Source: Chitinophagales bacterium
Lineage (GTDB): Bacteria > Bacteroidota > Bacteroidia > Chitinophagales > Saprospiraceae
Length of the DNA: 64,000 nt
Direction of reading: 5' to 3'
NCBI GenBank assembly: GCA_013299105.1
Contig: JAAFJY010000002.1
Location: 248,001-312,000, forward strand
Shown: piece by piece, positions 11,913-14,966 of the stretch
Layout of the letters: every line of letters starts with the position of its first letter
How positions within the stretch are numbered: position 1 is the stretch's first letter
The notes under the pieces: generated by a model
Seen by the model: the letters and a program-made list of their open reading frames with translations, nothing else
Database searches by the model: none
What the model was told of the DNA's origin: nothing
Position numbers and translations under genes: made by a program

Positions 11913-12374
11913 ATGCACAAGCTAGATGAATACGACAAAGCCCTCTTGCGACAACTACAACTCAACAACAAAATCAGTGCTGAGGAATTGGGGGAAATGG
12001 TGAAACTCAGTACCAGTGCTGTTCAGCGACGCCTCAAACGCTTGCGCGACGACAAAGTGATTGTGGCCGACATCTCCGTTGTGGCTCCGGCAGCAGTGGG
12101 CATGGGCATCACTTGTATTGCTGATGTGACCCTGCACCTAGGAGGCTCGCAGTACATCGACAAGTTCAAAGCACTGATGCTAGCCTGTCCAGAGGTCAGT
12201 CAATGCTACTATGTCACCGGTTCTTATGATTTTGTGGTCATCGCACACGTTTCAGACATGAAGCAATACGAGGATTTTTCCAAAAAATGCTTCATGGACA
12301 ATCCCGATGTCAAGCAGTTTTATACCCATGTGGTCATGGATCGGGTGAAGATGGGTTTTGGGGTAGAGTTGTGA
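11913..12374 (+). CDS. Lrp/AsnC family transcriptional regulator
   Basis: LDEYDKALLRQLQLNNKISAEELGEMVKLSTSAVQRRLKRLRDDKVI HTH plus AsnC ligand domain. Confidence 0.92.
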   Translation: MHKLDEYDKALLRQLQLNNKISAEELGEMVKLSTSAVQRRLKRLRDDKVIVADISVVAPAAVGMGITCIADVTLHLGGSQYIDKFKALMLACPEVSQCYYVTGSYDFVVIAHVSDMKQYEDFSKKCFMDNPDVKQFYTHVVMDRVKMGFGVEL

Positions 12375-12395
12375 TGCGATCATATGATGGCATCA
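12372..12395. promoter_or_regulatory. 24-bp palindrome copy 1 (TGATGCGATCA-TA-TGATGGCATCA), candidate operator
   Basis: 11-bp arms with a single mismatch and 2-nt spacer; overlaps the stop codon of the Lrp gene; near-identical to copy 2. Confidence 0.6.
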
Positions 12396-12470
12396 AAAAT
12401 AGGTATTTAAAAAACTCCTCTCGAAAAACTCAAAACAATTCAACCAACAACTATTTGATAATGAATTTAT

Positions 12471-12502
12471 TTTGTGATTTTTGACAAAATTAAATACCTT
12501 TG
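12471..12502 (+). promoter_or_regulatory. Bacteroidota-type promoter for the Fic gene (TTTG-N20-TACCTTTG)
   Basis: TTTG at 12471-12474 and TACCTTTG at 12495-12502, 20-nt spacer, matching the -33 TTTG / -7 TAnnTTTG consensus. Confidence 0.6.
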
Positions 12503-12524
12503 ATGCGATCAAATGATGGCATCA
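12501..12524. promoter_or_regulatory. 24-bp palindrome copy 2 (TGATGCGATCA-AA-TGATGGCATCA), candidate operator over the fic start
   Basis: Differs from copy 1 by one spacer base; abuts the -7 element and reaches the first base of the ATG at 12524. Confidence 0.65.
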
Positions 12525-13483
12525 TGAACCACATTTACTACGAAGGGACGCCCAAAATCATCAATTTATCCATTGAGATTGGCAGGATGTTGGGATTAGT
12601 AGATGCCACCCATCTTCGGAAAGCACCAACCGAACTTCGGAAGAAAAACAAGGTAAAGACCATCCGTGCTTCACTGGCGATTGAGGGGAACACCCTGGGT
12701 GAAGAACAGATTACTGCGATTCTCGATCGCAAACGGGTCATTGGTCCCGCAAAGGACATCAAAGAAGTGGAGAATGCGATTGTGGTTTACGACAAGTTAT
12801 CAGATTTTAATGCCTTTTCCAAGGAATCTTATCTGGAGGCACATGGTTTATTGATGGCTGGTTTGGTGGAAAAACCTGGCCAGTTCAGAACCAGTTCGGT
12901 CGGTGTGGTTCAAGGAGACAGGATTGCGCATTTGGCTCCACCAGGATGGAATGTCGATCATTTGATGGACAATTTATTTGGCTATCTCCGCAGCGGAAAA
13001 GATAACCTGATCATCAAAAGTTGCGTGTTTCACTATGAGATGGAATTCATTCATCCTTTTCTGGATGGAAATGGCCGCATGGGCCGTTTATGGCAAACTG
13101 TGATTTTAATGAACGCAAATCCGGTGTTTGAGTATTTGCCCATCGAGAAAGAAATAAAAGAAAGCCAGGAAGAATACTACCGTGTGCTCAGTCAATGCGA
13201 CCAGGAAGGATTGTGTACAAAGTTTGTGGAATACATGCTGGACAAGATCAAATTGAGCTTGGAAGAATTAGTGGGTGTCCGAAGGGAAAACTTGTCAGAC
13301 CTGGACCGCTTGTACTATTTTCTTGAGCAAAATAGTGTTCCTGATTTCAGCAGAAAAGACTACCTCCAAATGTTCCCTAAAATCTCCACGGCTACTGCCA
13401 CCCGCGATTTGAGAAAAGGAGTTGAAATGGGCATTTTAGACCGAGAGGGAGAGGACAGGCTTGCCCGTTACCGAAGGAGATAA
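12524..13483 (+). CDS. Fic family protein (likely AMPylase, class II with N-terminal inhibitory motif) with C-terminal winged-helix region
   Basis: HPFLDGNGRMGR Fic motif; SLAIEGN matches [S/T]xxxE[G/N] inhibitory motif; C-terminal DYLQMFPKISTATATRDLRKGVEMGIL winged-helix-like. Confidence 0.92.
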   Translation: MNHIYYEGTPKIINLSIEIGRMLGLVDATHLRKAPTELRKKNKVKTIRASLAIEGNTLGEEQITAILDRKRVIGPAKDIKEVENAIVVYDKLSDFNAFSKESYLEAHGLLMAGLVEKPGQFRTSSVGVVQGDRIAHLAPPGWNVDHLMDNLFGYLRSGKDNLIIKSCVFHYEMEFIHPFLDGNGRMGRLWQTVILMNANPVFEYLPIEKEIKESQEEYYRVLSQCDQEGLCTKFVEYMLDKIKLSLEELVGVRRENLSDLDRLYYFLEQNSVPDFSRKDYLQMFPKISTATATRDLRKGVEMGILDREGEDRLARYRRR

Positions 13484-14778: not shown

Positions 14779-14966
14779 ATTAGAGCGGCTGGCGAAAGAA
14801 TAGAGTGACTCTCGTCCCAACATGAACAAGAATGCAAACAAACTTTAGACTTGAAACCGAAAACACATCCTGCATCGTGTAACCCTGGACTTCAGTCCGG
14901 GGACAAATGTAGCCCCCAGATTCACATTCTGCATCTATCCGGCAGTTGCATCAAAAATCACGAAAC

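What the first reader, a model, noticed from the sequence alone, without database searches (positions are those of the whole stretch)
12372..12526. Twin 24-bp palindromes bracketing the fic promoter, the second lying on the start codon
TGATGCGATCA-NN-TGATGGCATCA occurs twice, at 12372-12395 and 12501-12524 (129 bp apart), differing at only one spacer base. Copy 1 overlaps the stop of the Lrp gene. Copy 2 directly follows a TTTG-N20-TACCTTTG promoter and ends on the A of the fic ATG, so it would cover the transcription start. The Fic protein has a C-terminal winged-helix-like region, suggesting autoregulation by the Fic protein, possibly with DNA looping between the two sites; the neighbouring Lrp-like regulator is an alternative binder.
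Basis: partly seen in the sequence, partly recalled or inferred. Interest (0 to 1): 0.7.

Follow-up and report, generated by a model that had tools for sequence, protein, structure and literature searches.

The report
Self-made operator of a Fic enzyme
The two palindromes are copies of a DNA switch that accompanies one family of Fic (AMP-transferring) enzyme genes wherever the gene goes in the Bacteroidota and a few other phyla, almost certainly read by the enzyme's own DNA-binding tail so that it can limit its own production; self-repression by a Fic protein is already known in Yersinia, but this compact switch and the enzyme-DNA matching rule found here appear undescribed.

Summary
Confirmed and largely supported. 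Both 24-bp sites are real (0 expected by chance), and they are the only two such sites in the 7.7-Mb genome. The site before fic is not local. At 60 of 61 homologs from other genera and phyla a TGATasTATCA-WW-TGATasTATCA site lies within 60 bp of the start codon, usually fused to the TAnnTTTG promoter box; in a second set it is 40 of 43. It is absent from 37 of 37 related Fic genes with a different C-terminal HTH. In 247 genomes the motif occurs 18 times, once per genome: 12 at an intact fic, 4 at broken fic, 2 alone. The Lrp gene is a neighbour only here. Residue 293, in the predicted recognition helix, tracks operator position 5: Ser with A, Thr with G/C/T. A prediction written down beforehand held for 18/18 Thr and 18/19 Ser homologs. 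Best explanation: the Fic dimer represses its own promoter by covering the start site, as shown for Yersinia CccR, which uses a different operator. The upstream copy is an auxiliary site found in few lineages (about 5 of 100 genes), with variable spacing, so looping is possible but unsupported. Binding itself is not shown.

The parts
12501..12524 (+). primary Fic operator TGATGCGATCAAATGATGGCATCA, overlapping the last two bases of the -7 box and ending on the A of the fic ATG
   Evidence: conserved at 60/61 and 40/43 homologs
12372..12395 (+). second (auxiliary) operator copy TGATGCGATCATATGATGGCATCA, beginning on the stop codon of the Lrp-type gene
   Evidence: full second copies occur in only about 5 of about 100 homologs
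12471..12474 (+). TTTG, putative -33 element, 20 bp from the -7 box
   Evidence: sequence; consensus from PMC7366714
12495..12502 (+). TACCTTTG, Bacteroidota -7 element (TAnnTTTG)
   Evidence: 45 of 60 homologs have TAnnTTTG overlapping the operator start
12394..12411 (-). inverted promoter-like flank of copy 1 (AGGTATTTAA 12401-12410 pairing with TTAAATACCT 12490-12499; TATTTTTG on the minus strand at 12394-12401)
   Evidence: significance unknown
12524..13483 (+). fic gene: class II Fic AMPylase-like enzyme (SLAIEG inhibitory motif, HPFLDGNGRMGR active-site motif) with C-terminal winged helix
   Evidence: Pfam PF02661 E=1.9e-18; alignment A2; AlphaFold model pLDDT 89
13298..13477 (+). coding part of the C-terminal winged helix (residues 259-318); predicted recognition helix residues 289-301, specificity-linked Thr293 at 13400-13402
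   Evidence: helices 259-269, 277-283, 289-301; strands 305-308, 315-318
11913..12374 (+). Lrp/AsnC-type regulator gene, neighbour only in this genome
   Evidence: Pfam AsnC_trans_reg E=1.6e-18; not near fic elsewhere

Best explanation
The 24-bp site is the dedicated operator of this Fic family. The Fic protein, as a dimer (inferred), binds it through its C-terminal winged helix. Because the site overlaps the -7 box and the expected transcription start, bound Fic keeps RNA polymerase off and represses its own gene (inferred). This would hold a potentially toxic AMP-transferring enzyme at a low level. Residue 293 of the recognition helix reads position 5 of the half-sites: Ser with A, Thr with G, C or T (shown as co-variation, not as contact). 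The gene carries this circuit with it when it moves. The upstream copy is a second binding site that probably strengthens repression locally (inferred).
For: Position and promoter fusion. Conservation confined to exactly 24 bp with a sharp drop outside. Present at 60/61 homologs within 60 bp of the start (the other 217 bp away), 40/43 in a second set, and the inner ATCA-NN-TGAT dyad at 15/15 of a diverged clade. Absent from 37/37 Fic homologs with other C-terminal HTH types. Nearly exclusive to fic or its remains in 247 genomes, 0 control hits. Residue 293 is the best of all columns (phi 0.93; next 0.81). Written prediction held in 18/18 Thr and 18/19 Ser. On a tree built without the winged helix, 4-5 of 5 independent changes go the same way and none the other way. 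Residue 293 lies in the predicted recognition helix. Precedent: Yersinia CccR, class II Fic with C-terminal HTH, represses its own promoter by binding inverted repeats (PMC9755527).
Against: No binding or expression data for this family. The tree-based sign test reaches only p = 0.06-0.125 with 5 pairs. In the diverged f10 clade the Ser/Thr rule is loose (several Ser proteins with G arms). Three homologs lack the operator (two of one genus, L239, L257; and L248). Repression rather than activation is inferred from position only.
Confidence: 0.85

Rival explanations
1. Another regulator of the host, for instance the neighbouring Lrp-type protein, binds the palindromes.
For: Lrp-type gene adjoins copy 1; Lrp/AsnC proteins often act on neighbouring genes (general knowledge).
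Against: No Lrp gene next to any other homolog nor an ortholog in three related genomes tested; operator never found away from fic or its remains apart from 2 solitary sites; operator varies with the Fic recognition helix.
Confidence: 0.04
2. Fic binds the operator, but mainly so that DNA controls the enzyme (dimerisation, switch to removing AMP) rather than to control its own gene.
For: Coxiella CbFic2 is a class II Fic whose winged helix binds DNA, inducing dimerisation and deAMPylation (PMC10628234).
Against: The operator nearly always lies on the fic promoter and start site and is not scattered elsewhere; this fits gene control. The two are not exclusive.
Confidence: 0.06
3. The sequence acts in the mRNA, as a hairpin over the start codon that limits translation.
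For: It is an inverted repeat touching the ATG in many homologs.
Against: Expected transcription start lies inside the site, so the hairpin would be cut short; distance to the ATG varies from 0 to about 14 bp; one homolog has it 217 bp upstream; base at position 5 follows a protein residue.
Confidence: 0.03
4. The palindromes are ends or target sites of a mobile element that carried fic in.
For: Fic is patchy (68 of 398 family genomes), its tree mixes families and phyla, and copy 1 shares an inverted flank with the promoter.
Against: Nearly all homologs have one site only, fused to the promoter, and there is none at the 3' end of the gene in the window; sharp 24-bp conservation and co-variation with the winged helix fit an operator.
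Confidence: 0.02

Closest known systems
CccR of Yersinia pseudotuberculosis (PMC9755527)
   Same: Class II Fic enzyme with C-terminal HTH domain; binds inverted repeats in its own promoter and represses its own gene (shown there by reporter, EMSA, footprint).
   Different: CccR operator is two 10-bp boxes AGATAATCAT/ATGATAATCT 26 bp apart near -35/-10 (46 bp); here a compact 24-bp pair of 11-bp palindromes at the -7 box and start codon. CccR is a secreted type VI effector; nothing of the kind is known here.
CbFic2 of Coxiella burnetii (PMC10628234; PDB 8cil)
   Same: Class II Fic with C-terminal winged helix that binds DNA; related fold (Foldseek E=1.3e-10, 16-17% identity).
   Different: Bound random-sequence DNA in the tests reported; no operator in its own promoter found in the passages read; carries DUF4172 at the N-terminus.
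Dde_2494 of Desulfovibrio, PDB 4rgl
   Same: Nearest solved structure over the whole length (39% identity, Foldseek E=8e-25; phmmer 1.3e-72).
   Different: Structural genomics entry; regulation unknown to me, operator not examined.
SoFic, anti-phage defence Fic (PADLOC PDLC03963)
   Same: Best PADLOC model, E=1.4e-40; Fic core.
   Different: NCBIfam SoFic equivalog cut-off not met (53 against 550 bits).

Membership tests
Class II Fic (Fido) enzymes | Fic core with HxFx(D/E)GNGRxxR motif | tested here: met
   PF02661 E=1.9e-18; HPF-DGNGR invariant
Class II Fic (Fido) enzymes | N-terminal inhibitory helix (S/T)xxxE(G/N) | tested here: met
   SLAIEGN at residues 50-56, invariant Glu54
Class II Fic (Fido) enzymes | AMP-transferring activity | not testable with these tools
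   needs biochemistry
Self-repressing Fic-HTH proteins (CccR type) | C-terminal HTH/winged helix domain | tested here: met
   AlphaFold model, helices 259-269, 277-283, 289-301 and wing
Self-repressing Fic-HTH proteins (CccR type) | inverted-repeat operator in its own promoter, linked to the HTH | tested here: met
   (comparative only)
Self-repressing Fic-HTH proteins (CccR type) | binding and repression demonstrated | not testable with these tools
   needs EMSA/footprint and reporter
Self-repressing Fic-HTH proteins (CccR type) | same operator layout as CccR (10-bp boxes, 26-bp spacer) | tested here: not met
   24-bp compact site here; CccR site
SoFic (NCBIfam NF046030) | score above equivalog cut-off | tested here: not met
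   53.2 of 550 bits
Lrp/AsnC binding site | conserved association with an Lrp gene | tested here: not met
   only in the window's own genome

The most novel reading that the evidence does not exclude
A whole family of mobile, single-gene AMP-transferring toxins carries a self-contained one-protein circuit (enzyme plus operator) whose DNA code drifts and resets with one recognition-helix residue (Ser reads A, Thr reads G/C/T), so that each lineage's Fic represses only its own kind. Coexisting or incoming copies would then be insulated from, or able to silence, each other, like phage repressor immunity groups.
Probability: 0.3. Interest if true: 0.7.

Novelty: new variant of a known kind. Interest (0 to 1): 0.52.

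Why it matters
It ties a large, functionally unexplained group of Fic enzymes to a defined DNA target, so regulation of the enzyme becomes directly testable with a 24-bp probe. It gives a one-residue/one-base specificity rule for a winged helix that survived a prediction made in advance. It also suggests that self-repression by Fic proteins, known from Yersinia, is widespread, perhaps with each HTH subtype having its own operator, and it offers a motif for finding such genes and their remains.

Tried and rejected
Viral contigs held no relative. Lrp as binder: rejected by lack of linkage. Mobile-element end: no 3' copy and nothing to support it; the empty-site comparison failed because the four genus relatives searched lack the stretch. 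Peptide conservation instead of DNA conservation (MRSNDGIM): rejected, the Ser-type genes mostly have no start codon in the site. Regulon: no further operator in the genome, though several other loci in it carry distant Fic-domain matches. Looping with fixed phase: second sites lie 129, 55, 154, 62 and 44 bp away, with no common helical phase. Other Fic subfamilies share no common operator. Literature: none of the listed papers that print the 11-mer is about Fic (20 of 27 listed); only CccR is described as self-repressing. attC-like sites before some fic genes: no Rfam match.

Full report
WHAT IS THERE. They are the only ones of their kind in the whole genome. Copy 2 begins on the last two bases of a Bacteroidota -7 box (TACCTTTG) with TTTG 20 bp upstream, and ends on the A of ATG 12524. 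The consensus TTTG(-33)/TAnnTTTG(-7) is as cited in PMC7366714. The expected start of transcription therefore lies inside the palindrome (inference). The ORF could be read from ATG 12503, inside the palindrome, but related genes mostly have no start codon there, so the DNA and not a peptide is conserved.

THE SITE BELONGS TO FIC. I collected homologs from the family, class, phylum and an 85,000-species collection. Of 61 genes of the family with readable upstream DNA, 60 have TGATnnnATCA-NN-TGATnnnATCA (at most 2 mismatches) within 60 bp of the start and the last has it 217 bp upstream. The set includes two Bdellovibrionota and one Spirochaetota MAG. The consensus is TGATA(G/C)TATCA-AA-TGATA(G/C)TATCA; information content is high over 24 positions and falls sharply outside, except for the TA..TT of the -7 box. 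TAnnTTTG overlaps the operator in 45 of 60. A more diverged clade (about 35-38% identity at L169) keeps the inner ATCA-NN-TGAT at 15 of 15. Another 37 Fic homologs, alike in the core but with unrelated C-terminal HTH domains, have none (the six 'other' genes with an operator are family members that the pattern for the winged helix missed, some of them cut short).

THE SITE IS FOUND ALMOST NOWHERE ELSE. A strict pattern search of 247 class genomes gave 18 sites, one per genome, and no control hit. Twelve are at an intact or contig-cut fic, four at fic remnants (L163, L167, L178, L179) and two (L162, L174) stand alone (the L163 remnant rests on a short MKPPYTT start seen by eye). There is thus no sign of a regulon. 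The Lrp-type gene is next to fic only in this genome.

THE PROTEIN READS IT. AlphaFold gives a confident model (pLDDT 89) with a winged helix at residues 259-318 and a recognition helix at 289-301. Among all alignment columns, residue 293 in that helix best separates G-type from A-type operators (phi 0.93; next 0.81). I then wrote down a prediction: new homologs with Thr293 carry at least two G/C among the four arm-5 bases, those with Ser293 at most one. In 43 new genes it held for 18/18 Thr and 18/19 Ser. Two features were not foreseen: a separate Thr group (L252-L258) whose operators use C and T, and several Ser reversions within the Thr clade with A-type operators. Restated, Ser goes with A and Thr with not-A: in the core family 67 of 69 Ser genes have at least three A, and all 26 Thr genes have at most two. 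On a tree made from the Fic core alone, 4 or 5 of 5 independent pairs agree, depending on the cut-off, and none oppose; with five pairs the sign test cannot go below 0.06. In the diverged clade the rule is loose.

HOW IT MOST LIKELY WORKS. Shown: site, position, linkage and co-variation. Inferred: that Fic binds as a dimer, that binding represses, and that this limits a toxic activity. The Yersinia Fic protein CccR does precisely this with a different operator (PMC9755527). Coxiella CbFic2 shows that DNA binding can also switch a Fic enzyme's activity (PMC10628234); both effects could act here.

THE UPSTREAM COPY. Exact extra 11-bp units within 300 bp upstream occur in 6 of 60 genes against 0.65 expected. 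Full second copies were seen in this genome (129 bp), L250 (55), L251 (154), L256 (62) and L139 (44). In L256 the second copy shows the same unusual C/T code as its Fic, which suggests it is bound too. Spacing follows no helical phase, so looping is unproven. In this genome copy 1 is joined to an inverted stretch of the fic promoter, which looks like an inverted partial duplication; whether it drives an antisense transcript into lrp is unknown.

NOVELTY. Self-repression by a Fic-HTH protein is known; this operator type, its family-wide spread and the residue-base rule were not found in the library searched, which lacks most subscription journals.

Noticed in passing
window 14848-14957: A roughly 100-bp interspersed repeat with about 40 further copies (75-92% identical) across this genome, sometimes in close inverted pairs.
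   Followed up: no
L163, L167, L178, L179 (around position 1501): Broken or truncated fic genes whose promoter and operator remain; L178 keeps only the start and the last 50 codons. L162 and L174 have the operator with no recognisable fic.
   Followed up: partly
L010, L033, L017, L137, L175, upstream of fic: Imperfect palindromes with GTTRRRY-like ends resembling integron attC sites just before the fic promoter; fic may travel as an integron cassette with its own promoter. No Rfam match.
   Followed up: partly
L034 (G077), fic C-terminus: Second fic copy in one genome has lost the recognition helix by an internal deletion while its operator is intact, beside a complete copy (L019): a natural case of an enzyme that may no longer bind its operator.
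   Followed up: no
L060, L062, L066, L071, upstream of fic: Fic genes with another HTH type have direct repeats of the kind GCAAGATAATGCGCAAG before the start, suggesting each HTH subtype has its own operator.
   Followed up: partly
window 12372-12411 and 12488-12524: The lrp-fic intergenic region is an imperfect 153-bp inverted repeat: copy 1 is flanked by an inverted piece of the fic promoter with a TATTTTTG box pointing into lrp.
   Followed up: partly
L239, L257 (genus g57) and L248: The three homologs of the hold-out set without a recognisable operator; they appear to have other DNA directly before the start.
   Followed up: no
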